DNA from: Gemmatimonadaceae bacterium
GTDB lineage: Bacteria > Gemmatimonadota > Gemmatimonadetes > Gemmatimonadales > Gemmatimonadaceae
NCBI GenBank assembly: GCA_036273715.1
Contig: DASUHB010000061.1
Coordinates: 1 to 44,607, forward strand
DNA: 44,607 nucleotides
Reading direction: 5' to 3'
Shown here: positions 6,572-18,326 of the stretch, piece after piece
Layout of the letters: every line of letters starts with the position of its first letter
Position numbering within the stretch: the stretch's first letter is position 1
Notes under the pieces: model-generated
Seen by the model: the letters and a program-made list of their open reading frames with translations, nothing else
Told to the model about the DNA's origin: nothing
Database searches by the model: none
Position numbers and translations under genes: made by a program

Positions 6572-7666
6572 ATGCGAGCGTTCGGCATGAGCCTTCCTTG
6601 CCCGCTCCCGCCGGCCGCGCCCGACGCGCTCACGGTCGAGCGCGTTCGCGCAACACTACGGACGATCGCCTACCCCGGCCTAACGCGCGACCTGGTGTCG
6701 TTCGGGATGGTGCAGCACGTCGCGGTGTGTGATGGCCGCGTGAGGGTTCAGTTAGGCCTGCGCACATCTGACGAGACCATTCCCGCTCGCCTCCGCGCGT
6801 CCATCGAGGCAGCGCTCATGCCGCTCGGGGCGACGAGCGTCGCAGTCGAGATTGTGGCGCCGGCAGCGACGCCCGCGCGGCCTCGGAATACCACACCGGA
6901 TCCGTGGGCGGACCAGGTTCGTCTCGCGAGCGTGCGCCACATCATCGCCGTTGGCGCCGGCAAGGGCGGCGTCGGCAAGAGCACCGTCGCCGTGAATCTC
7001 GCCCTGGCACTGGCGCGCGAGGGGCTGCGCGCGGGGCTGCTCGACGCGGACATCTATGGGCCCAGCCTTCCGATTCTTCTCGGCCTCGACGATGGCGCAT
7101 CGAAAGTACGGATGTCCGCCGAGAAGCACATCGAACCGCTCGAGGCGTACGGCCTGCCAATGATCAGCTTCGGCTTTTTTCTCGGCGAAGGATCACCGGC
7201 GATCTGGCGAGGCCCGATGGTCTCGAAGGCGGTGAAGCAGTTTGCTCGCGGCGTCGCGTGGCCCGAGCTCGACGTGCTCGTCGTTGATCTTCCGCCGGGC
7301 ACGGGCGACGTGCCGCTGAGTCTCGTGCAGGCCGTCGCACTATCCGGTGCAGTGATCGTCACGCAGCCGCCGCGCGTCGCGGTCGCGGAGGCGCGCAAGG
7401 CCGCGGAAATGTTCCGCACGCTGGACGTGCCGGTGCTGGGTGTCGTCGAGAACATGAGTGGCGTGTTCGGACGCGGCGCGGGACGCAGCGTGGCCTCCGA
7501 AATCGGCGTGCCGTTCCTCGGCGAGATTCCGTTCGACGAGACCGTCGTCGAGGAAGGAGACCGCGGGACACCGACGATGGTCGAGCGCGCGCACAGCGCG
7601 ACCGGCCTGGCGTTCGATCACATCGCGGCAACCGTGGCCGAGGCGCTGGGATGGCGGCGAGCCTAA
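6572..7666 (+). CDS. Mrp/NBP35-type P-loop ATPase with N-terminal DUF59 domain, lacking CxxC
   Basis: 364 residues. An N-terminal DUF59-like domain spans about 20-105 and a P-loop ATPase about 120-355. Visible motifs are the deviant Walker A GKGGVGKST, DADIYGPSLP, LVVDLPPGTGD and VVENMSG. Mrp/ApbC proteins carry and transfer Fe-S clusters, usually through a CxxC motif right after the ENMS segment. Here that stretch is shortened to VFGRGAGRS and contains no cysteine, so classical cluster bridging at the dimer interface should not work. It may act on a specific metalloenzyme, perhaps the upstream Mo protein; that is inference. An ATG at 6587 is an alternative start. The stop TAA lies inside a GCCTAACG word, and the next gene starts 16 nt before it. 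Confidence 0.88.
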   Translation: MRAFGMSLPCPLPPAAPDALTVERVRATLRTIAYPGLTRDLVSFGMVQHVAVCDGRVRVQLGLRTSDETIPARLRASIEAALMPLGATSVAVEIVAPAATPARPRNTTPDPWADQVRLASVRHIIAVGAGKGGVGKSTVAVNLALALAREGLRAGLLDADIYGPSLPILLGLDDGASKVRMSAEKHIEPLEAYGLPMISFGFFLGEGSPAIWRGPMVSKAVKQFARGVAWPELDVLVVDLPPGTGDVPLSLVQAVALSGAVIVTQPPRVAVAEARKAAEMFRTLDVPVLGVVENMSGVFGRGAGRSVASEIGVPFLGEIPFDETVVEEGDRGTPTMVERAHSATGLAFDHIAATVAEALGWRRA

Positions 7667-8991
7667 CGACTGGAACGACGCCGCCGCATCGCGGGACGTC
7701 GATATCGGGCAGCGTTAGGCTCGGCGCAGTTGCGCCCGCGTCCGGATCGATTCGGTTGGCCGCCGAGCACTTCACTGCGGCGACGCTGTACCTGCTCGCG
7801 GGATCCGTGGGGCTCGTGTGGATCGCGCCCGAGCTCGCAGCGGGCAACTACCTGTCGCCACACGTTGCAGGCGTGACGCATCTCTTCACGCTTGGCTGGA
7901 TCACGATGACGATCTTCGGCGCTCTCTACCAACTCCTGCCGGTCGCACTCGGCGCGCCGATTCGTTGGCCGAAGCTCGGGCACACGAGCTTCTGGACCTT
8001 CGCACCCGGCGTGGGACTGTTCGCGTGCGGCATCGCAGACAACTCGACGCTGCTCCGTCATGTTGGCGTCGGTCTCGTCGCGATCGGCGTCATCCTGACG
8101 GTGACCAACGTTGCCGCGACGCTCCCGCGCGCTCGTTCGCGCGACGTGACCTGGGCGGCGATCGCCATCGCGATCACGTACCTGTCCTCGACGCTGGTAC
8201 TCGGCGTCGTTCTCCTGCACAACATCCACACCGGCTTCATTGCCGCGGTTCGCGTGCAGGTGCTGGCAACGCATCTCCACGTCGCGATCGTCGGTTGGGC
8301 GCTCATCATGATCGTCGGCGTCGCGCACCGCCTGCTGCCGATGTTTCTGCTGGCGCACGGCGCCAATGTGCGTTGGACGAAGCCTGCGCTCGGCCTGCTC
8401 GCCTGCGGCGTGCCGCTGCTTGCAGTGGGCATCACGACACGACATGACGCCGCATCGTGGACGGCAGTTGTGCTGATGGAAGCGGGCCTCGCCTGCTTCA
8501 TTTACCAGGCCGTATCGTTCTTCCGCGTCCGCGTGCGCAAGCGCATCGATGTCGGGCTGCGGTTCGCGGCGGCGGGTCTCGCGTTCCTCATCGCTGCCGC
8601 TCTGTTCGGGCCGGTCGTGCTCTGGCGCGGCCCGAGCGCCACGCGTCTTGCCACAGCGTACGTGGTCCTCGCGCTGTTGGGCGGCATCGTCGTCTTCGTA
8701 TCGGGCTTCTTCTACAAGATCGTTCCGCTGCTTGCCTGGACGGCTCGTTACAGCGGGCCCAAACGAATCGAAGGCGCACCAACTGTCGCCGAGCTCTTCT
8801 CGGCGCGCGTTGCCGAGGTTCAGCTCGGCGTGATGGTGAGCGCACTCATCATTCTCTCGATCGCCATTCTCCTTGGCTCGTCCGCGGGCGCGTATGCCGG
8901 CGCCGCCCTGTTTGCGTTAGGCGTCCTATTGTTCCTGAGCCAGATCGGCCGCGCCGCACTCGGGCGCCCGCGCAGAGGTATCGCGACATGA
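7651..8991 (+). CDS. polytopic membrane protein related to haem-copper oxidase subunit I / NnrS
   Basis: 446 residues with about 12 hydrophobic helices and little else. Two similar segments each carry conserved histidines: THLFTLGWITMTIFGALYQL near 85-105 and THLHVAIVGWALIMIVG near 207-225. This pattern is seen in CcoN-like and NnrS-like membrane proteins, where such histidines bind haem. NnrS is linked to nitric-oxide stress in denitrifiers. The CuB HH pair of a true oxidase is not evident, so it is probably not itself a terminal oxidase. It overlaps the Mrp gene by 16 nt and the next gene by the ATGA tetranucleotide, so the three are translationally coupled. Family assignment is moderate. 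Confidence 0.6.
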   Translation: MAASLTTGTTPPHRGTSISGSVRLGAVAPASGSIRLAAEHFTAATLYLLAGSVGLVWIAPELAAGNYLSPHVAGVTHLFTLGWITMTIFGALYQLLPVALGAPIRWPKLGHTSFWTFAPGVGLFACGIADNSTLLRHVGVGLVAIGVILTVTNVAATLPRARSRDVTWAAIAIAITYLSSTLVLGVVLLHNIHTGFIAAVRVQVLATHLHVAIVGWALIMIVGVAHRLLPMFLLAHGANVRWTKPALGLLACGVPLLAVGITTRHDAASWTAVVLMEAGLACFIYQAVSFFRVRVRKRIDVGLRFAAAGLAFLIAAALFGPVVLWRGPSATRLATAYVVLALLGGIVVFVSGFFYKIVPLLAWTARYSGPKRIEGAPTVAELFSARVAEVQLGVMVSALIILSIAILLGSSAGAYAGAALFALGVLLFLSQIGRAALGRPRRGIAT

Positions 8992-9842: not shown

Positions 9843-10076
9843 ATGCCGACCAAGACGACCGAACTCGACGCCCGCGTGATTCCACCGCGGGAGAAGCACC
9901 CGACGATCTTTCGTACCTTTGACGGCCTGGCACGCGGTGAGTCCATGGTCATCATCAATGACCACGATCCCCGGCCTCTTCGCTACCAGCTCGACGCGGA
10001 GCATCCAGGCGAGTTTGTCTGGACCTATGAGTCCGAAGGCCCGGAGGTGTGGCGCGTGAGAATCGACCGGCGTTAG
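9843..10076 (+). CDS. small DUF2249 protein
   Basis: 77 residues forming a single DUF2249 module. LDARVIPPREKHPTIFRTFDGL opens it, and the VIINDHDPRPLRYQL and WRVRIDRR segments are typical of the stand-alone family members. It follows the double-module protein by 30 nt and is probably in the same transcript. The fold is TusA-like; stand-alone forms are common next to nitrite, NO and oxidase genes, but the biochemical role is not established. The TAG stop is supplied by a CGTTAGGC word. The next gene lies on the opposite strand and converges on it. Confidence 0.85.
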   Translation: MPTKTTELDARVIPPREKHPTIFRTFDGLARGESMVIINDHDPRPLRYQLDAEHPGEFVWTYESEGPEVWRVRIDRR

Positions 10077-10154: not shown

Positions 10155-10949
10155 TCACACAACCCGAGTGGAGAGGCGCGCCGGCTGGCGGATCACGAGT
10201 GCAGCCGCCACCGTGAAGACGATCGCGCCCGGGAACCACATCAGAGCGCCGGCGAGCCGCTGATCGGCGAGCGCCGATGCCGGCGTCGCGCCTGGCACGT
10301 GCAGGTACGCAGTGTACAACACGCTCTGATGGAACGTGATCAGCGCGCCAAGGAGCGCGGACTGCATCATTCCCGCAACGAGGTAGGCGACGCGTGCGCC
10401 ATTGGTCGCGAGCGAATCCATCTCCCGCGACGATTCGATCAGTGGCCACCAGTAAAGCAGATAGGCGCCGAGAAACGAGAGATGCTCGATGTGGTGCACT
10501 GTCTCATCGGCGAGCGTCCACGCGTAGGCGAGCGGTGCGTGCCACACCCAGAGCAGGATAGTGGAAGTCACCCAGGCGACGAGCGGGCGCGTGAGATGAC
10601 CGCCGGCGTTCCGCACGATCGCCGGCAACCGTTCGGCGCGATCGAGCATCGGAGCGACGCCGACGAGTACGAGCGGCGCGACCACCCAGATGAGCAGATC
10701 GTGCTCGACCATGTGCATCGAGAGCAGCCGCTCGCCGTTCACAGCGATCGGCGACAGGAGCGCGATCGCCATCACCGCCATGGCGGCCGTGAATGCCGCC
10801 ATGCGGCTCGGCGTTAGGCGCAGTCTGCGGCTGCCGATCCCGCCGCGCGCCCACAGAACGACGTAGACCAGCTCGGCGACGACGATCGCGGCGACGAACG
10901 GCGGGTCCCACTCCCACCCCCAGACGAAAGCGACTGAGCCCGTGCCCAC
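10155..10949 (-). CDS. ctaG: cytochrome c oxidase assembly factor CtaG (caa3 type)
   Basis: 264-residue membrane protein with about seven helices. The motifs SMHMVEHDLLIWVVAPL, WHAPLAYAWTLADETVHHIEHLSF and ITFHQSVLYTAY carry the histidines conserved in the CtaG_caa3 family. These proteins assist insertion of copper into subunit I of caa3-type oxidases. The start is a GTG at 10949, 13 nt after the end of the subunit I gene, and it is the last gene of the minus-strand cluster. It supports the view that the oxidase-like enzyme upstream has a copper centre and is assembled in the usual way. Confidence 0.88.
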   Translation of the reverse strand: MGTGSVAFVWGWEWDPPFVAAIVVAELVYVVLWARGGIGSRRLRLTPSRMAAFTAAMAVMAIALLSPIAVNGERLLSMHMVEHDLLIWVVAPLVLVGVAPMLDRAERLPAIVRNAGGHLTRPLVAWVTSTILLWVWHAPLAYAWTLADETVHHIEHLSFLGAYLLYWWPLIESSREMDSLATNGARVAYLVAGMMQSALLGALITFHQSVLYTAYLHVPGATPASALADQRLAGALMWFPGAIVFTVAAALVIRQPARLSTRVV

Positions 10950-10962
10950 GCGCTGGCCGCGA

Positions 10963-12486
10963 TCAGGACTGCAAGGCCGGACCCTCGGTTCCGCGCCACG
11001 CCGACAGAAAGCGCCTCGCCAGATCCCACGAGAGCCAGGCGAGCCCGAAGGCGAGAACGACCACGAAGGGGACGGCTACGCGCGCGTACATCTGCCACTG
11101 CGTGAGGTGCACGGCGTACCGTCGCGGAACGCTGTTCGCGCCGGCCACAAAGAACATGAGGATGAAACCCGCGCCGCCGATCCCGTACAACCATACGGCG
11201 ATCGAGCTCGCGCGAGCGGCGCGCCGATCGCTCAGCTCGTGCACCATGTAGAACAGGTATCCCCACGCGAACGCCACTGCGCCGAGCAGATAATAAGTGT
11301 GGAAGTGCGCGGGCACCCACATCGTGTTGTGCAGCACTTGGTTCACTGGAATCGTGGCGTCGAGCACCGCGCCCAGGCCACCGAACACCCATCCCCAGAT
11401 CCCGAGTGCCAGCAGCATCGGCGCCGCCGTCCAGCGAATGCCGGAGCGGTAGATGAGCGTGAGCGCCCCAATGATGGTGACGATGAACGACGGTAGCGCG
11501 ACAGCGTACGAGGCGATCTCGGCGAGGAGCTGAAGCCCGACGGGCTGTGCGAAATCCGCGTACAGGTGGTGCGAGTAGTTCGTTAGCATGAGGATGATGA
11601 TCAGGTCCCACGCGCACACCACGGCCCACGTCGTCCGCCACGGCCGGCCGGTAAAGGCGGGCAGCGCCGCGTAGACGAGCCCGGCCCCCACGTAGATGCT
11701 CAGATTCGCCATGGTGTGGCCGAAAAGGAGCACTGTGTTCTTCGCATAGAGCGCGTCGACGGACATCACGCCCGCCGCGTGGAGGAAGATGGGCACCAGA
11801 TAGAGCATACCCGCCGTCGCGGCGGCGATCCCGTCGATCGAGATGACGCCGGCGATGAGCTCGGGCGGCCGCGGCAGCGGATCGCGCGTGTCGCGTCCGA
11901 GGGAGAACAGGAAGCGCAGTGCGAACAAGCGAACGAACCCGCCATGCGCGCGGGCGAGCGCGTGCAGCATGTGCACGCAGTAGAGGAGGAGGCCGAGCGC
12001 GATGAAGAGGTAGCCGGCGTACATCGCGAGGGCGGCATCCAGCGTCCACACGAGCCCGTGAGTCGGGAGTGGATAGAGCACCGTCCATCCGCCACCGAAG
12101 CCGCCGACCAGCGTCGCGAGGATCACGAAGCTGGTCCCGATGAAGTAGATGACGAGGGCGATCCAGAGGACGCGGGCGCTGAGGCGCGTGGTGGCGCTCA
12201 CCGCGGCCGCGAGGCCGCCGGTGACGGCAAGCAAGATCGAAGCGACCATGCCCGCCCCATGCAACGTCATCACGCGGTAGAACCATACGGGCGCGATCAC
12301 AAGGATGCCGCCCTGGTCGAGTCGCATGAGGAGGCCGAGCAATCCCATCAAAAGGAAGCTCCCGAGGCCGACCACGAGATAGACCAGCGCCACACGGAGC
12401 ACGCTGCTATTGGACCGATCCGGCGCGAGCAACGGCGTTAGGCCAGCCGCATCCGCGAGCGGTGCGCGACGATGCGGCGACGTCAC
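10963..12486 (-). CDS. haem-copper oxidase subunit I, B-family-like, lacking the catalytic tyrosine (candidate NO reductase)
   Basis: 507 residues with about 12-13 transmembrane helices. Haem and copper ligands are all visible: His76 (TLHGAGMV) and the HNTMWVPAHFH segment with His386, His394 and His396 for the haems, plus His257 and His306-His307 (NYSHHLY) for CuB. In A- and B-family oxygen reductases helix VI reads GHPxVY, where the Tyr four residues after His is crosslinked and needed for O2 splitting. Here it reads GHTMAN, so that position is Asn261 (codon AAT). The alternative C-family Tyr, six residues before the HH pair, is Met300. Tyr-less members of this superfamily are mostly nitric oxide reductases. 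It overlaps subunit II by GTGA. The superfamily is certain; NO reductase activity is inference. Confidence 0.85.
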   Translation of the reverse strand: MTSPHRRAPLADAAGLTPLLAPDRSNSSVLRVALVYLVVGLGSFLLMGLLGLLMRLDQGGILVIAPVWFYRVMTLHGAGMVASILLAVTGGLAAAVSATTRLSARVLWIALVIYFIGTSFVILATLVGGFGGGWTVLYPLPTHGLVWTLDAALAMYAGYLFIALGLLLYCVHMLHALARAHGGFVRLFALRFLFSLGRDTRDPLPRPPELIAGVISIDGIAAATAGMLYLVPIFLHAAGVMSVDALYAKNTVLLFGHTMANLSIYVGAGLVYAALPAFTGRPWRTTWAVVCAWDLIIILMLTNYSHHLYADFAQPVGLQLLAEIASYAVALPSFIVTIIGALTLIYRSGIRWTAAPMLLALGIWGWVFGGLGAVLDATIPVNQVLHNTMWVPAHFHTYYLLGAVAFAWGYLFYMVHELSDRRAARASSIAVWLYGIGGAGFILMFFVAGANSVPRRYAVHLTQWQMYARVAVPFVVVLAFGLAWLSWDLARRFLSAWRGTEGPALQS

Positions 12487-13019
12487 TCCTGCCTCGCCAC
12501 GGTGAGCCGGGCCGTCATCATGTGGTGTCCGACGCCGCAGTATTCCAGACAGCGCACGGTGTAGGTCCCTGGAGCGCTGAACCGGTACACGAGGCGGTTG
12601 ATGTAGCCGGGCATCGCCTGCACCTGCGTGAGCAGCCGGCCGTCCGGATCGTATATGGCGAAGTCGTGGTTCACGTCGCGCGACGTGACATCGAACTCAA
12701 TCGGGATGCCGGCCGTTAGGCGATCGCGCGAGATGATCCAGCCCCACTGCACGGCCGTTGCCGTGATCGTGACTTGCGGCGGGCCGAGCTCGGCGCGCCG
12801 TGATCCGGCGAACGGCAGCCGCGGCAGGCTGAGGACGAAGACCACGATCGCAATGGCAGCGAGGCCGCCGAGCAGGCCGACGCGAATACGATTCTCCGAT
12901 CGCTCCAGCTGCTCGACAGGGATCGACCGCCCCGACCGGGCCATGATGATCGCCCAGCCTAACGTCCACACCGCGCCCATCGCGATGAGGACGCCGAAGA
13001 TGACGTGAGGATTCTGCAT
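12483..13019 (-). CDS. haem-copper oxidase subunit II with intact CuA site
   Basis: 178 residues from the ATG at 13019; the open frame extends to 13064, but that part overlaps the DUF488 gene. Two hydrophobic helices (about 6-24 and 45-65) precede a cupredoxin domain. All CuA ligands are present: a histidine in VNHDFAIYD and the motif CLEYCGVGHHMM, which supplies two Cys, the Glu carbonyl position, His and Met. It should therefore accept electrons from a cytochrome c or cupredoxin. The complete CuA distinguishes this pair from NO reductases with a cytochrome c subunit and from quinol-type enzymes, whose subunit II lacks copper. The stop overlaps the GTG of subunit I. Confidence 0.9.
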   Translation of the reverse strand: MQNPHVIFGVLIAMGAVWTLGWAIIMARSGRSIPVEQLERSENRIRVGLLGGLAAIAIVVFVLSLPRLPFAGSRRAELGPPQVTITATAVQWGWIISRDRLTAGIPIEFDVTSRDVNHDFAIYDPDGRLLTQVQAMPGYINRLVYRFSAPGTYTVRCLEYCGVGHHMMTARLTVARQE

Positions 13020-13032
13020 CCTGGGCCGCCCG

Positions 13033-13464
13033 TCAGTTCTTCGAGCGACCCGGACGCTTCGCACCCGCCGTCCGCCTAACGCGCGCGGCGGGACGTTTCG
13101 CCTTCGGTGCGTTCAGCCGGCGCCCGAGGAGCTGACTGAGCACCGCGACGTCGCTGATGTCGGCGGCGTGCGATGCGTACACGAGCGTAACGCGGCCGCG
13201 TTGGCCGCGGCGGACCAGGTCATCGAGCACGGCCTGCGCGCCAGGCGACTTCAGCTCCTTCGCGTACCGTTTGCGAAACTCCGGCCACTTTGCGGGGTCG
13301 TGCTCGTACCACTCCCGCAACTCGCGCGACGGCGCGATCTCTTTGGCCCACGCGTCCAGATGCGCATTGGCCTTCGACAGACCGCGTGGCCAGAGCCGGT
13401 CAATGAGCACGCGGTAGCCGTCGGATGGCGCGTACGCCTCGTAGGCTCGCTTGGTCGCAATCAT
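13033..13464 (-). CDS. DUF488 family protein (YeaO-like)
   Basis: 143 residues. Motifs RVLIDRLWPRGLSK, WAKEIAPSRELREWYEHDPAKW and VTLVYASHAADISDVAVL define the YeaO-type DUF488 family, small cytosolic proteins often encoded near redox or nitrogen-oxide genes. Function is not established. The last 25 residues are strongly basic (many Lys/Arg with Ala/Pro), beyond the usual family end, so it may bind nucleic acid or simply carry a flexible tail. It ends 13 nt before the subunit II start, so it is probably co-transcribed with the oxidase genes. Confidence 0.85.
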   Translation of the reverse strand: MIATKRAYEAYAPSDGYRVLIDRLWPRGLSKANAHLDAWAKEIAPSRELREWYEHDPAKWPEFRKRYAKELKSPGAQAVLDDLVRRGQRGRVTLVYASHAADISDVAVLSQLLGRRLNAPKAKRPAARVRRTAGAKRPGRSKN

Positions 13465-13537: not shown

Positions 13538-14239
13538 TCAAGGCAACGGCGCCCTATCGTCCTCAGCGCCGCCGAGGCCGAGGCGGAAGCCTACGCCGCG
13601 GATCGTCCCCAGCAGCGACTCACCCGACGCTCGCCGCAGCTTTCGGCGCAGGTTCCCGACATGGACATCCACAACGTTGCTCTCCGGATCGAAATGCATG
13701 TCCCACACTTTCTCCAGAAGCGTGGTACGGCGGACGATCTCCCCAGGGTGCAGCATGAAGTGCTCGAGGAGCTGGAACTCCTTCGCCGTGAGATCCACGG
13801 GCCGCTCGTTGAGCGTCACCACGTGGTGCAGTCGGTCCATTACGATCGCGCCGTAGCGCAGCACATCCAGCCGCTCAGCACCACCGCGCCGATGCAGCGC
13901 GCGGATTCGGGCCAGTAGCTCGTCGAACTTGAACGGCTTGGCGAGGTAGTCGTCTGCGCCGACGTCCAGTCCGCGTACCACATCCTCGACCGCGTCGCGC
14001 GAGGTCAGCATGAGGATTGGCGTGTTCCGCCCCTCTCGCCGAAGCTCGGCGGCAACCTGAAATCCGTTCTTCTTCGGCAGCAGGACGTCGAGCAAGATGA
14101 TGTCGTAATCGTTGACGTGCGCGAGCAAGCTGGCCTCATCTCCATCCCGGGCCACGTCTACAACGTGTCCTTCCTCCCTCAGTCCGTGGTCGATGAATCC
14201 GACCACTTTGGAATCATCTTCAACCACAAGGATCTTCAT
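13538..14239 (-). CDS. OmpR/PhoB family response regulator
   Basis: 233 residues. A receiver domain (1-115) shows the acidic pocket EDD near 7-9, the phospho-acceptor Asp51 in ILLDVLLPKK and a KPF lysine near 102. A winged-helix DNA-binding domain (about 130-225) includes LTAKEFQLLEHFMLHPGEIV and VDVHVGNLRRKL. It is encoded 56 nt after the GAF histidine kinase on the same strand and is its likely partner. The DUF488 and oxidase genes follow in the same direction after 73 nt, so they are the obvious candidate regulon; that link is inference from position. Confidence 0.93.
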   Translation of the reverse strand: MKILVVEDDSKVVGFIDHGLREEGHVVDVARDGDEASLLAHVNDYDIILLDVLLPKKNGFQVAAELRREGRNTPILMLTSRDAVEDVVRGLDVGADDYLAKPFKFDELLARIRALHRRGGAERLDVLRYGAIVMDRLHHVVTLNERPVDLTAKEFQLLEHFMLHPGEIVRRTTLLEKVWDMHFDPESNVVDVHVGNLRRKLRRASGESLLGTIRGVGFRLGLGGAEDDRAPLP

Positions 14240-14295: not shown

Positions 14296-15534
14296 TCAGG
14301 ATGAGATGGCGGGGATTTCGAGGATGAAATGCCCTCCCTTGCCGGGGATCGAGACGGCGCGAAGCTCACCTCCGAGCAAGCGCGCGAGTCGCCGTGAGAG
14401 CGGCAGCCCCAAGCCAACTCCACGACTCTCCTCCTCTCCCCTGCTCACGTATATGTCGAAGATTCGCTCCACCTCGCTCGGCGCCACTCCCGGGCCCTCA
14501 TCCTCGACGTCATAGGCAACGCGTCCGTCGCGCGACGTGATGCTCACCTGCACGACGCTTCGCTCGGGAGCGTACTTGATGGCGTTGCCGAGCAGGTTAA
14601 TCAGAATCTGCTCGACTCGATTGACATCGGTTGCGCAGTTAGGCAGATCGCGACTCACCGCCAGCCTGAAGGTGATCCCTCTCTGATCGGCGGCAGGAGT
14701 TTCGCGGCCCATCGCGCGCCTGGCCATGGCCGATGGCTCGACCATCCTGATGACGGGCTTCAGACGATCCTCGTCCAAGCGGCTCAGATCCAGCAAGTCG
14801 TTGATGAGATGGATCGCGTGTTCGGCCGAGCCCAAGACCTCGAAGGCGGCGCGCGGGACTGTCGCCGGATCCCGTTTCCGCACGAGCATTTCCGACCATC
14901 CGTAGACCGCCGCCAACGCGTTTCTGAGCTCGTGGTTCACCATCGCGAAGAACCGCTCTCGCATGCGCTGTAGCTGCTGCACCTCGTCGAGCAGTCGGGC
15001 ACTCTCTTCATGGTGCCGCGCGTTCTCGACTGCCGCGGCAGCATTGGCCGCCAGCAGTATCGCGATGTCCTCGTCCTCCTCGGTGAACTCGTGGCCACCG
15101 ATCTTCTCGGTCACGTAGAGGTTCCCGAACACACCTCGCCTTCCGATGATCGGGACGCCGAGAAAGGAATGCATCGGCGGGTGGTTCGGTGGAAACCCGT
15201 AGGAGCTGGGGTGGGCAGCGAGATCCGGCAGCCGAATCGGCTTGGCCTCCTTGATGACCAGGCCAAGGACGCCGTGCCCGTTAGGCGGCGCTCCAATCCG
15301 GCGCCCCAGCTCGGGGTCGATCCCATGCGTTACGAAGCTCTCCAGGCGTTTTCCGTCCGGGCCGATCACTCCAATGGCGGCGTAGCGCGCCTCGATCACC
15401 TCTGCGGCCACTTGCACGACGCGCTGGAGCACCGCCTCGAGAGACACGTCGGTGATGAGCGCCGCAGTCGCGACCTCGAGCCTTCTGAGACGCTGCTGCA
15501 TCGACGACGGCTCGGCGGCTGGTGATCCAGTCAT
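14296..15534 (-). CDS. GAF-domain sensor histidine kinase (DosS-like GAF)
   Basis: 412 residues from the ATG at 15534 (an upstream ATG at 15591 adds 19 residues without obvious conservation). A GAF domain spans about 15-160, a HisKA helix pair with VNHELRNALAAV carries the phospho-accepting His, and a HATPase_c domain shows N (LLGNAIKYAP), DEGPGV and GVGLGLPLS boxes. No transmembrane segment is seen, so the sensor is cytosolic. The GAF motifs VTHGID, GVLGLVI, IRLPDLAAHP, NHPPMHSFLGVPI and FGNLYVTEK closely resemble the haem GAF of mycobacterial DosS/DosT, which senses O2, NO and CO. The HPP histidine lies in the region of the DosS haem ligand, but the segment is also common in GAF kinases without shown haem. 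Confidence 0.9.
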   Translation of the reverse strand: MTGSPAAEPSSMQQRLRRLEVATAALITDVSLEAVLQRVVQVAAEVIEARYAAIGVIGPDGKRLESFVTHGIDPELGRRIGAPPNGHGVLGLVIKEAKPIRLPDLAAHPSSYGFPPNHPPMHSFLGVPIIGRRGVFGNLYVTEKIGGHEFTEEDEDIAILLAANAAAAVENARHHEESARLLDEVQQLQRMRERFFAMVNHELRNALAAVYGWSEMLVRKRDPATVPRAAFEVLGSAEHAIHLINDLLDLSRLDEDRLKPVIRMVEPSAMARRAMGRETPAADQRGITFRLAVSRDLPNCATDVNRVEQILINLLGNAIKYAPERSVVQVSITSRDGRVAYDVEDEGPGVAPSEVERIFDIYVSRGEEESRGVGLGLPLSRRLARLLGGELRAVSIPGKGGHFILEIPAISS

Positions 15535-15585
15535 AGTCCGCAACTTACAACGACCAGCGCACAGCTGGGGAGCAATGCGGCGATT

Positions 15586-15605
15586 AGGCAAAGCTTCCTT
15601 TGCCT
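15586..15605. promoter_or_regulatory. perfect 8-bp inverted repeat with 4-nt loop between divergent genes
   Basis: AGGCAAAG (15586-15593), loop CTTC, then CTTTGCCT (15598-15605). It lies in the region between the histidine kinase (minus) and the secreted protein at 15699 (plus). It could be an operator or an RNA hairpin in the leader. No T tract follows on the plus strand beyond TTC, so a terminator is less likely. Confidence 0.4.
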
Positions 15606-16158: not shown

Positions 16159-17805
16159 ATGCAGATGAAACACGCATGGCTGTGTTTTGCCGTGGCGACG
16201 GTCAGCGTCGTACCCGCACAGGCACAGACTAACTGGTCGACGTACGGCGGAAGTGACTGGAACCAACGATGGTCCACGCTCGCGCAGATCAATGTTCGGA
16301 ACGTGAAGAACCTCGTGCCCAGAATCGTATTCCAGACGGGCACCGGCAAACTCGGCTCGTTCGAGACCACTCCCATCGTGGTCGACGGCAGGATGTACGT
16401 GACGACGCCAAACAGCGAGGCAATTATCGCGTACGATCTGCGAACCAAGAAGCAGTTGTGGAGACAGGAGCCGAAGATCGGACCGGTCATCACGTGTTGT
16501 GGACCGGTCAACCGTGGCGTCGCAATCGGCGGCGGCATGGTGTTCGTCGGGACGCTCGACGCACGATTGCTCGCTTTTGACGCGCTCACTGGCGAGCCGA
16601 AGTGGGAAGCGCAGGACGCGGATCCGTCGCTCAGCTACAGCATCACGATGGCGCCGCTCGTGGTAGGTGACAACGTCATTGTCGGCGTGTCCGGAGGCGA
16701 GTACGGCATTCGCGGTCACCTCACGGCATACAACATCACCACGGGCAAGCAGGTGTGGCGCTGGTACTCGATCCCCGCCCCGGGTGACGACCCCGTGGCG
16801 ACTAACGGATGGTGGGGTACCTGGGCGACCAAGGCGGAAAACGCCGACCTCCATCGGGACATCGCGAAGGAGAAGGCTGACAGCGCCAAGTATGCCGATG
16901 CATGGCAGCGCGGCGGCGGCGGCGTGTGGACGACGCCCGCGTACGACAAAGCGTCCAACACCATCTTCGTCACGGTAGGCAATCCGTCACCGGACTTGGA
17001 CGGTACGGCGCGCCCGGGTGACAACCTCTTCACCGACGCCATGGTCGCGATCGACGCGGCCACCGGAAAGACCAAGTGGTACTACCAGACCGTGCCCCAC
17101 GACGTCTGGGACCTCGATGCCACGTCGCCGTCGGTGGTCGCGATGTTAGGCAACAGGAAAGTTGTTCTTCACGCCGGCAAGACCGGCTGGCTCTACGTGG
17201 TCGACGCGTCCACCGGAAAGTTGGTGCGCAAGAGCCAGAACTTCGTGCCGCAGGAGAACATGTTCGCGCTGCCCACTCCCGAAGGGACGCGGATGCTGCC
17301 CGGTGCTAACGGAGGCTCCGAGTGGTCGCCGATCTCGGTGGATCCCAAGCTCGAATACGCTTTCGTCGCGGGTCTCCATCAGCCGATGAACTACAAGACG
17401 CACCCCGCACCGTGGGAGAAGGGTCGACTGTGGCTCGGCTCCGCATTCGTCGCCGCTCCTGGAGAGCCGCAGTATGGTCTGTTCTCGGCGGTGGACCTGA
17501 AGACGGGCAAGATCGCATGGCAGAACAAAGTTGATCAGCCAATGATGGGCGGATCGCTCGCAACCGCCGGCGGTCTCGTTTTCACGGGCGAAGGCAACGG
17601 CAACTTCAATGCGTTCGACGCGAAGACAGGCAAGCTGTTGTGGCAGTTCCACGCCGGCGCCGGGTGCAATGCCGCACCCATGACGTTCGAGATGGACGGA
17701 GAACAGTTCATCGCCGTCGCGTGCGGCGGCAATTTCCAACTCAGTTACCCACTCGGCGATGCCGTGATGATCTTCGGCTTGCCGAAACCGTGGGCGGCAC
17801 GATGA
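16159..17805 (+). CDS. PQQ-dependent alcohol dehydrogenase with lanthanide-type Asp-X-Asp motif
   Basis: 548 residues, periplasmic: a signal peptide ends near AQAQ (residue 23). Eight-bladed PQQ propeller repeats occur throughout (for example ATGKTKWYYQT, LKTGKIAWQN, AKTGKLLWQF). The vicinal disulfide Cys113-Cys114 in ITCCGPVNRG is diagnostic of PQQ alcohol dehydrogenases. HDVWDLD places catalytic Asp318 with a second Asp320 two residues on. This extra Asp marks lanthanide-dependent enzymes (XoxF, PedH); calcium enzymes such as MxaF have Ala there. There is no C-terminal cytochrome c domain. The stop overlaps the start of a blue-copper protein (ATGA), a likely electron acceptor. Substrate class (methanol, ethanol or another alcohol) is not determined by what I can see. 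Confidence 0.88.
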   Translation: MQMKHAWLCFAVATVSVVPAQAQTNWSTYGGSDWNQRWSTLAQINVRNVKNLVPRIVFQTGTGKLGSFETTPIVVDGRMYVTTPNSEAIIAYDLRTKKQLWRQEPKIGPVITCCGPVNRGVAIGGGMVFVGTLDARLLAFDALTGEPKWEAQDADPSLSYSITMAPLVVGDNVIVGVSGGEYGIRGHLTAYNITTGKQVWRWYSIPAPGDDPVATNGWWGTWATKAENADLHRDIAKEKADSAKYADAWQRGGGGVWTTPAYDKASNTIFVTVGNPSPDLDGTARPGDNLFTDAMVAIDAATGKTKWYYQTVPHDVWDLDATSPSVVAMLGNRKVVLHAGKTGWLYVVDASTGKLVRKSQNFVPQENMFALPTPEGTRMLPGANGGSEWSPISVDPKLEYAFVAGLHQPMNYKTHPAPWEKGRLWLGSAFVAAPGEPQYGLFSAVDLKTGKIAWQNKVDQPMMGGSLATAGGLVFTGEGNGNFNAFDAKTGKLLWQFHAGAGCNAAPMTFEMDGEQFIAVACGGNFQLSYPLGDAVMIFGLPKPWAAR

Positions 17806-18326
17806 TGAAAAAGCTTCTCGCGACGGTGGCGCTCGCCGTGATGGTGCCCACCGTCGCGAGCGCCCAGCGACAGGCGGTGGACCCCCACTGGCTGTCGGTG
17901 GACGCAAGTGCGAAGACGGCGCGGTTTCAGCTGATCGCCGGCCTAACGGGCACCAATGGCGCGCTGAACTTCAACGGGTTCGCCGATGGTGGCCTAACGA
18001 TCGTGATCCCCGTCGGCTGGACGGTCGAGATGGACTTCTTCAATCACGACGGCATGCTTCCGCACTCCGCCATCGTGGTTGCCGCCAAGCTTCCGATGCA
18101 GGCAGCACCGTCCGATCCAGCCATACCTCGGGCGTTCACGGTGAAGATGAGTGAGGGACTACCGCCGCTCGGGAAAGACACCATGCGCTTCACCGCTGCC
18201 CCAGCCGGCGACTACTTCATCGTGTGCGGCGTGCCGGGCCACGCGGCGGCTGGCATGTGGATCCGGCTGCAGATCAGCAGCACCGTGACGGCGCCGACGA
18301 TGTCCGCCACACAGCCACCAAAGTGA
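17802..18326 (+). CDS. sulfocyanin-like blue copper protein, secreted
   Basis: 174 residues beginning with a signal peptide (MMKKLLATVALAVMV to ASAQ). The mature cupredoxin domain shows a type 1 copper site: His in DGMLPHSAIVV and CGVPGHAAAGMW, with Cys, His and Met spaced as in sulfocyanin/plastocyanin-type proteins. The ATG overlaps the PQQ dehydrogenase stop, so the two are translationally coupled. In most PQQ alcohol dehydrogenase systems the acceptor is a dedicated cytochrome c; here no cytochrome gene is present and this protein is the obvious replacement. Two GCCTAACG words fall within the gene, both encoding Gly-Leu-Thr. Confidence 0.85.
   Translation: MMKKLLATVALAVMVPTVASAQRQAVDPHWLSVDASAKTARFQLIAGLTGTNGALNFNGFADGGLTIVIPVGWTVEMDFFNHDGMLPHSAIVVAAKLPMQAAPSDPAIPRAFTVKMSEGLPPLGKDTMRFTAAPAGDYFIVCGVPGHAAAGMWIRLQISSTVTAPTMSATQPPK

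What the first reader, a model, noticed from the sequence alone, without database searches (positions are those of the whole stretch)
10963..12486. Haem-copper oxidase subunit I without the catalytic tyrosine: candidate NO reductase with CuA
The helix-VI motif of oxygen reductases GHPxVY is GHTMAN here; the Tyr position is Asn261 (codon AAT at 11704-11706 on the minus strand). All six haem/CuB histidines remain and the paired subunit II has a full CuA motif. The C-family tyrosine position, six residues before the HH pair, is Met. Loss of the crosslinked Tyr with retained metals is the pattern of NO reductases derived from oxygen reductases (groups described as eNOR, sNOR, gNOR, nNOR, bNOR). 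Which group, if any, cannot be settled by eye.
Basis: partly seen in the sequence, partly recalled or inferred. Interest (0 to 1): 0.76.

Follow-up and report, generated by a model that had tools for sequence, protein, structure and literature searches.

The report
sNOR-like nitric oxide reductase, Gemmatimonadota
A gene that databases would call an oxygen-respiring oxidase lacks the tyrosine oxidases need and belongs to a widespread sNOR-like family, so it probably turns nitric oxide into the greenhouse gas nitrous oxide and fills a step that looked missing in these soil bacteria; the kind of enzyme was already proposed, but it has not been tested biochemically.

Summary
ORF 10963-12486(-) is a 507-residue, 12-helix haem-copper subunit I. 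The crosslinking-Tyr position is Asn261 (AAT, 11704-11706). All six histidines are kept and the adjacent subunit II has a complete CuA site. It is not an oddity: Asn261 is invariant in all 96 family sequences compared, from more than ten phyla. They form one fully supported clade, sister to B-family O2 reductases plus Gln-bearing eNOR-like proteins. The clade contains the Ruegeria (Silicibacter) pomeroyi protein whose operon order (CuA subunit, subunit I, SCO, orf1) is that of sNOR. Best reading: an sNOR-like, CuA-fed NO reductase in a Gemmatimonadota/Chloroflexota subclade, with CtaG in place of SCO-orf1. Context fits: it is the only non-A-type haem-copper gene in the genome, which also has NirK next to NosZ. 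In 395 Gemmatimonadota genomes, 12 of 13 carriers have NosZ, against 131 of 395 overall. DrpA/DrpB (nitrate-respiration) homologues lie convergent to it. Function is inferred: I found no report of a purified sNOR, and one group argues it is a high-affinity oxidase. The family name is not final, because nNOR, bNOR and gNOR references could not be obtained.

The parts
10963..12486 (-). norY-like haem-copper subunit I (507 aa, 12 TM helices)
   Evidence: COX1 E 4e-44; AlphaFold model pLDDT 92, 12 helices; inside the Asn clade
11704..11706 (-). codon of Asn261, at the position of the crosslinked Tyr (Tyr237 in Thermus ba3)
   Evidence: AAT; invariant in 96/96 family sequences
11692..11694 (-). codon of Tyr265, family-specific invariant Tyr one turn below Asn261
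   Evidence: 96/96 in the Asn family; absent from the A/B-family sequences compared
12483..13064 (-). norS-like CuA subunit II (start probably the ATG ending at 13019), two N-terminal TM helices
   Evidence: COX2 E 1e-7; best PDB match Thermus ba3 CuA domain 3.5e-12; CuA ligands conserved 70/70, two TM in 64/70; its stop overlaps the norY start
10155..10949 (-). CtaG-like membrane copper-insertion factor, directly downstream
   Evidence: Caa3_CtaG E 1e-44; a CtaG-like frame also follows norY in related loci such as L036, L038, L041 and in Thermomicrobium roseum
14296..15591 (-). GAF histidine kinase, DevS-like haem-type GAF domain
   Evidence: GAF aligns to DevS-type GAF structures at 1e-38 to 1e-42; regulation of the operon is inferred
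13538..14239 (-). response regulator, downstream of the kinase and upstream of norS
   Evidence: ORF and sequence
9843..10076 (+). DUF2249 single-domain protein (DrpA-like), convergent to norSY-ctaG
   Evidence: DUF2249 E 2.6e-31; architecture of Thermus DrpA (PMC6282519)
8988..9812 (+). DUF1858 + two DUF2249 domains (DrpB-like)
   Evidence: members of the same module beside Asn-type genes in L068, L081, L077, L112, L071
7651..8991 (+). polytopic membrane protein, distant COX1-like, conserved in this module
   Evidence: COX1 E 0.13 only; homologues beside Asn-type genes in L068, L077, L081, L112
6572..7666 (+). Mrp/ApbC-type P-loop Fe-S carrier
   Evidence: ParA/Mrp E 2.5e-81 and FeS_assembly_P

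Best explanation
The gene encodes the catalytic subunit of an sNOR-like nitric oxide reductase (NorY), paired with a membrane-anchored CuA subunit (NorS) and a CtaG copper chaperone. Electrons from a periplasmic carrier (cytochrome c or a cupredoxin, inferred) enter at CuA, pass to the low-spin haem (H76/H396), then to the high-spin haem (H394) and CuB (H257, H306, H307). Two NO are reduced there to N2O (inferred). Without the His-Tyr crosslink the site lacks the extra electron/proton donor used to split the O-O bond. Asn261, with the invariant Tyr265 just below it, probably hydrogen-bonds and relays protons in its place (inferred). In this genome it would be the NO-reducing step between NirK and NosZ, probably controlled by the adjacent DevS-like GAF two-component system (inferred).
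For: Shown: Asn261, six His and CuA retained. One clade of Asn-bearing proteins, SH-aLRT 100 under two models, sister to B-family plus Gln-bearing eNOR-like proteins, holding R. pomeroyi SPO_RS20755. A published table lists sNOR as Asn and names Silicibacter (PMC8756737). A short Asn-type CuA-NOR is described as 12-TM subunit I with two-TM subunit II (PMC3475470), matched here. Only 4 COX1 genes in the genome, the other 3 A-type with GHPEVY/GHPWVY, so no cNOR/qNOR seen. NirK aligning over its Cu sites, beside NosZ. 12/13 carriers have NosZ, Fisher p 1e-5 without phylogenetic correction. DrpA/DrpB-type neighbours here and in other phyla. Rrf2-type regulators, nitrite transporters and SCO near relatives.
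Against: No enzyme of this clade is reported as purified in the papers read; sNOR function was proposed from sequence. PMC6967387 argues that N. europaea sNOR may be a high-affinity terminal oxidase, since it is induced under O2 limitation and B-type enzymes have high O2 affinity. NirK co-occurrence is weak (7/13 vs 109/395, p 0.04), and the co-occurrence tests are not corrected for phylogeny. No NirS or NarG in the genome.
Confidence: 0.77

Rival explanations
1. It is a high-affinity O2 reductase that works without the usual crosslinked Tyr, using Tyr265 (or Tyr398) as a relocated donor; NO reduction is a side activity.
For: Tyr265 and Tyr398 are invariant only in this family among those compared. 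The clade is sister to a group with B-family oxidases. N. europaea norSY is induced 2.7-10.8-fold under O2 limitation and its authors propose an oxidase role (PMC6967387).
Against: Tyr265 is at H257+8, two helical turns from the CuB ligand, too far for the known His-Tyr crosslink (inference from helix geometry; no model coordinates were available to measure). Carriers are enriched for NosZ and already have A-type oxidases. Neighbours are nitrogen-oxide genes.
Confidence: 0.15
2. It is an NO reductase, but of another named family (nNOR or bNOR in the scheme of Murali et al. 2024) rather than sNOR in the strict sense. This concerns the name, so it overlaps with the best explanation.
For: The window clade is one of five well-supported subclades with deep splits, and the R. 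pomeroyi protein lies in another. bNOR also has Asn (PMC8756737, PMC3475470). The defining paper and its HMMs are not held.
Against: The B. azotoformans enzyme (bNOR) is described with a 13-TM subunit I, a one-TM subunit II and a 46-aa peptide, and bNOR so far only in Bacillota (PMC3475470, PMC11388526), unlike this enzyme. All five subclades form one clade with one residue signature.
Confidence: 0.25
3. Decayed or non-catalytic oxidase subunit (sensor-like or pseudo-oxidase).
For: Loss of a catalytic residue.
Against: All metal ligands of both subunits are invariant across phyla and the operon with its copper chaperone is conserved.
Confidence: 0.03

Closest known systems
sNOR (NorSY with senC of nitrifiers; Ruegeria/Silicibacter pomeroyi SPO_RS20760-SPO_RS20755)
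   Same: Asn at the Tyr position, six His, CuA subunit II with two TM helices, short 12-TM subunit I, membership of one fully supported clade
   Different: About 35% identity to R. pomeroyi; separate subclade; CtaG directly downstream instead of SCO-orf1; Gemmatimonadota host
Thermomicrobium roseum TRD_RS11250 (annotated 'cbb3-type cytochrome c oxidase subunit I')
   Same: Same subclade, 48.5% identity, same CuA subunit, subunit I and CtaG set
   Different: A formate/nitrite transporter sits between subunit I and CtaG; function also untested
bNOR / CuANOR of Bacillus azotoformans
   Same: B-family-related, Asn at the Tyr position, CuA
   Different: 13-TM subunit I, one-TM subunit II, extra 46-aa peptide (PMC3475470); sequence not available here
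eNOR (Gln type; Thermus plasmid loci L156/L157 and L041_4931 here)
   Same: B-family-related, no Tyr, cupredoxin-type subunit II
   Different: GHGxQQ motif with Gln; separate clade
B-family (ba3) O2 reductases, Thermus and Aquifex
   Same: Closest solved sequences; same fold
   Different: Keep Tyr237; outside the Asn clade

Membership tests
sNOR | Asn in place of the crosslinked Tyr with all six His kept | tested here: met
   Asn261 and six His, invariant in 96 family sequences; sNOR = N in PMC8756737 Table A4
sNOR | CuA cupredoxin subunit II (NorS) encoded next to NorY | tested here: met
   CuA ligands complete, stop/start overlap
sNOR | Short 12-TM subunit I and two-TM subunit II | tested here: met
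   against PMC3475470 type II
sNOR | Clusters with a recognised sNOR sequence apart from O2 reductases | tested here: met
   Same clade as R. pomeroyi, SH-aLRT 100; Nitrosomonas NorY itself not available
sNOR | senC/SCO and orf1 downstream (operon context, not enzyme identity) | tested here: not met
   CtaG instead; SCO and orf1 occur in the proteobacterial and Bacteroidota subclades. For this reason the enzyme is called sNOR-like, not sNOR
sNOR | Top hit to the published sNOR HMM over nNOR/bNOR HMMs | not tested
   HMMs not held
NO reductase (activity) | Reduces NO to N2O | not testable with these tools
   biochemistry needed
bNOR (CuANOR) | 13-TM subunit I, one-TM subunit II, small extra peptide | tested here: not met
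   12 TM helices in subunit I and two TM in subunit II
eNOR | Gln at the Tyr position | tested here: not met
   Asn; outside the Gln clade
gNOR | Asp at the Tyr position | tested here: not met
   Asn; gNOR = D in PMC8756737 Table A4
nNOR | Published HMM / reference clade | not tested
   no reference sequence or definition held
B-family O2 reductase | Helix-VI Tyr crosslinked to the CuB His | tested here: not met
   Asn261; no Tyr at the C-family position either (M300)
cNOR/qNOR | Glu in place of Tyr, no CuA subunit | tested here: not met
   Asn261; CuA subunit II present; cNOR/qNOR = E in PMC8756737 Table A4

The most novel reading that the evidence does not exclude
The Gemmatimonadota/Chloroflexota subclade is a distinct NO reductase family in which an Asn261-Tyr265 pair replaces the His-Tyr cofactor, with its own CtaG-based assembly and a DrpAB/DevS-type context. 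It would make some Gemmatimonadota, including this genome, nitrite-to-N2 denitrifiers that current annotation misses.
Probability: 0.3. Interest if true: 0.65.

Novelty: new member of a known kind. Interest (0 to 1): 0.45.

Why it matters
Public annotation labels relatives 'cbb3-type cytochrome c oxidase', and the NCBIfam library sees this one only as a generic cytochrome c oxidase subunit I far below cut-off, so the NO-to-N2O step is invisible in routine genome surveys. A survey of over 400 Gemmatimonadota MAGs reported no complete denitrification pathway (PMC10581226), yet this genome has NirK, this enzyme and NosZ. Gemmatimonadota nosZ is said to be among the most abundant in soil (same paper), so whether these cells also make the N2O they consume matters for greenhouse-gas budgets. 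The invariant Asn/Tyr pair gives a directly testable question: what does an NO reductase need in place of the oxidase Tyr?

Tried and rejected
Relocated Tyr at the C-family position: the residue is Met300, rejected. Tyr304 or Tyr309 near the HH pair as a substitute: not conserved in the family. Pocket measurement on the AlphaFold model: no coordinates are returned, so side-chain distances could not be measured. Centring a genome search on a Bacillota locus to obtain bNOR was not accepted by the tool; plasmid searches gave no bNOR among the records looked at. NirS and NarG in the genome: only weak fragments, treated as absent. The defining sNOR/nNOR paper is not held. Fold comparison does not separate oxidases from NORs: Z 40 to aa3, 34 to Aquifex B-type and to cbb3.

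Full report
Observation. The ORF at 10963-12486 (-) starts with GTG, encodes 507 residues and has strong coding bias. It matches Pfam COX1 at 4e-44 and its closest solved sequences are B-family ba3 oxidases. Helix VI is GHTMANLSIY, with Asn261 (AAT, 11704-11706) where Thermus ba3 has Tyr237. H76, H257, H306, H307, H394 and H396 are all present, and residue 300, six before the HH pair, is Met. The adjacent subunit II has a full CuA set and aligns best to the Thermus ba3 CuA domain.

Not a private mutation. Relatives were collected from related genomes, from named genome contigs and from plasmids. In an alignment of 130 haem-copper proteins, 96 (window included) have Asn at this position, 33 have Tyr (A and B families) and one has Gln. 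The Asn proteins also share H76, H257, Y265, H306, H307, D311, N382, H386, N387, H394, H396 and Y398 (one truncated row has gaps after D311). Tyr265, one helical turn below Asn261, and Tyr398 are found only in this family among the sequences compared. Seventy linked subunit II proteins all keep H, C, C, H and M of CuA, and 64 of them have two predicted membrane helices.

Placement. Trees under LG+G4 (115 rows) and an LG+C20 mixture (78 rows) both place all Asn proteins in one clade with SH-aLRT 100, next to B-family oxidases and Gln-bearing eNOR-like proteins. Five subclades are supported: Proteobacteria-rich (with Ruegeria pomeroyi), Bacteroidota/Acidobacteriota/Verrucomicrobiota, Eremiobacterota/Bacillota, Actinomycetota, and the window's own (Gemmatimonadota, Chloroflexota, Thermomicrobium). 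These are quick trees without bootstrap, long branches separate the groups, and the order among subclades is not resolved.

What it is called. A published table gives sNOR the residue Asn and lists Silicibacter among its hosts (PMC8756737). The R. pomeroyi megaplasmid gene in this clade stands in the order CuA subunit, subunit I, SCO, hypothetical protein, formate/nitrite transporter, which matches nitrifier sNOR (norSY and senC in PMC6967387, and PMC3772326; the fourth gene, orf1, from general knowledge). The short Asn-bearing CuA-NOR of Bacillus (type II) has a 12-TM subunit I and a two-TM subunit II, while the type I enzyme (now bNOR) is longer, 13 and one (PMC3475470). The window protein has 12 helices in a confident model (pLDDT 92, pTM 0.91) and a two-TM partner. 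So sNOR-like is the best name. The defining paper and its HMMs are not held, and no bNOR, gNOR, nNOR or Nitrosomonas NorY reference could be placed in the tree, so nNOR is not excluded.

Genome context. The genes on the minus strand read, in order of transcription: GAF histidine kinase (DevS-like GAF), response regulator, DUF488 protein, norS, norY, ctaG. The norS stop overlaps the norY start. Converging on them from the plus strand are a protein with a molybdopterin oxidoreductase domain, an Mrp-type Fe-S carrier, a polytopic membrane protein, a DUF1858-DUF2249-DUF2249 protein and a DUF2249 protein. The last two have the architectures of DrpB and DrpA of Thermus nitrate respiration (PMC6282519), and DUF2249 genes are induced in haloarchaeal denitrification (PMC11218638). 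Members of the same module lie beside Asn-type genes in Bacteroidota, Eremiobacterota-like and Bacillota contigs. SCO, Rrf2 regulators and formate/nitrite transporters recur near other members.

Pathway. The genome has four COX1 genes: three A-type with the Tyr motif and this one, so no cNOR or qNOR was seen. It has a NosZ that matches the Sec-dependent (clade II) model at 916 bits, with a neighbouring copper nitrite reductase that scores below the TIGR02376 cut-off (204 of 296 bits) but aligns over the copper sites to solved NirK at 4e-61. No NarG or NirS was found. Across 395 Gemmatimonadota genomes, 13 carry an Asn-type gene; 12 of these have NosZ against 131 of 395 overall (Fisher p 1e-5), and 7 have NirK-type hits against 109 of 395 (p 0.04). 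In G071 the Asn-type gene and nosZ are about 18 kb apart on one contig. These tests are not corrected for shared ancestry. A survey of the phylum reported no complete denitrification pathway (PMC10581226); this enzyme would be the missing step in such genomes.

Mechanism. Shown: metal ligands, CuA, absence of the oxidase Tyr, conservation. Inferred: electron entry at CuA, NO reduction at haem/CuB, Asn261/Tyr265 as hydrogen-bond or proton relay, regulation by the GAF kinase. The main rival is that sNOR is a high-affinity oxidase, argued from induction under O2 limitation in Nitrosomonas europaea (PMC6967387). I weigh it lower because the Tyr is lost in every member, the genome already has three A-type oxidases, and neighbours and co-occurring genes point to nitrogen oxides.

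Novelty. The kind of enzyme is already proposed in the literature; this is a new member in a little-noticed subclade. Interest lies in misannotation, in the missing denitrification step of Gemmatimonadota, and in the testable Asn/Tyr pair.

Noticed in passing
L041:115-7872: A Chloroflexi contig carries an eNOR-like (Gln) subunit I with its cupredoxin subunit back to back with an Asn-type norSY and CtaG.
   Followed up: partly
L156:2821-4506 and L157:2821-4503: Thermus thermophilus plasmids carry a Gln-bearing eNOR-like enzyme annotated as ba3/cbb3 oxidase; in L157 it stands beside an Rrf2 regulator and a DUF542 gene. The low-spin haem His of HFH reads HFK.
   Followed up: partly
window 7651-8991: Polytopic membrane protein with only a trace of COX1 similarity, conserved beside DUF1858/DUF2249 genes in several phyla; function unknown.
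   Followed up: partly
window 16159-18326: PQQ-dehydrogenase-like protein and a sulfocyanin (SoxE) cupredoxin, a possible electron donor to CuA.
   Followed up: no
G000:C37:163889-164887: A second, partial NosZ at a contig end in the window's genome.
   Followed up: no
G071:C32:30840-31232 and similar places near nosZ in other genomes: Short frames with weak COX1 similarity lie next to nosZ.
   Followed up: no
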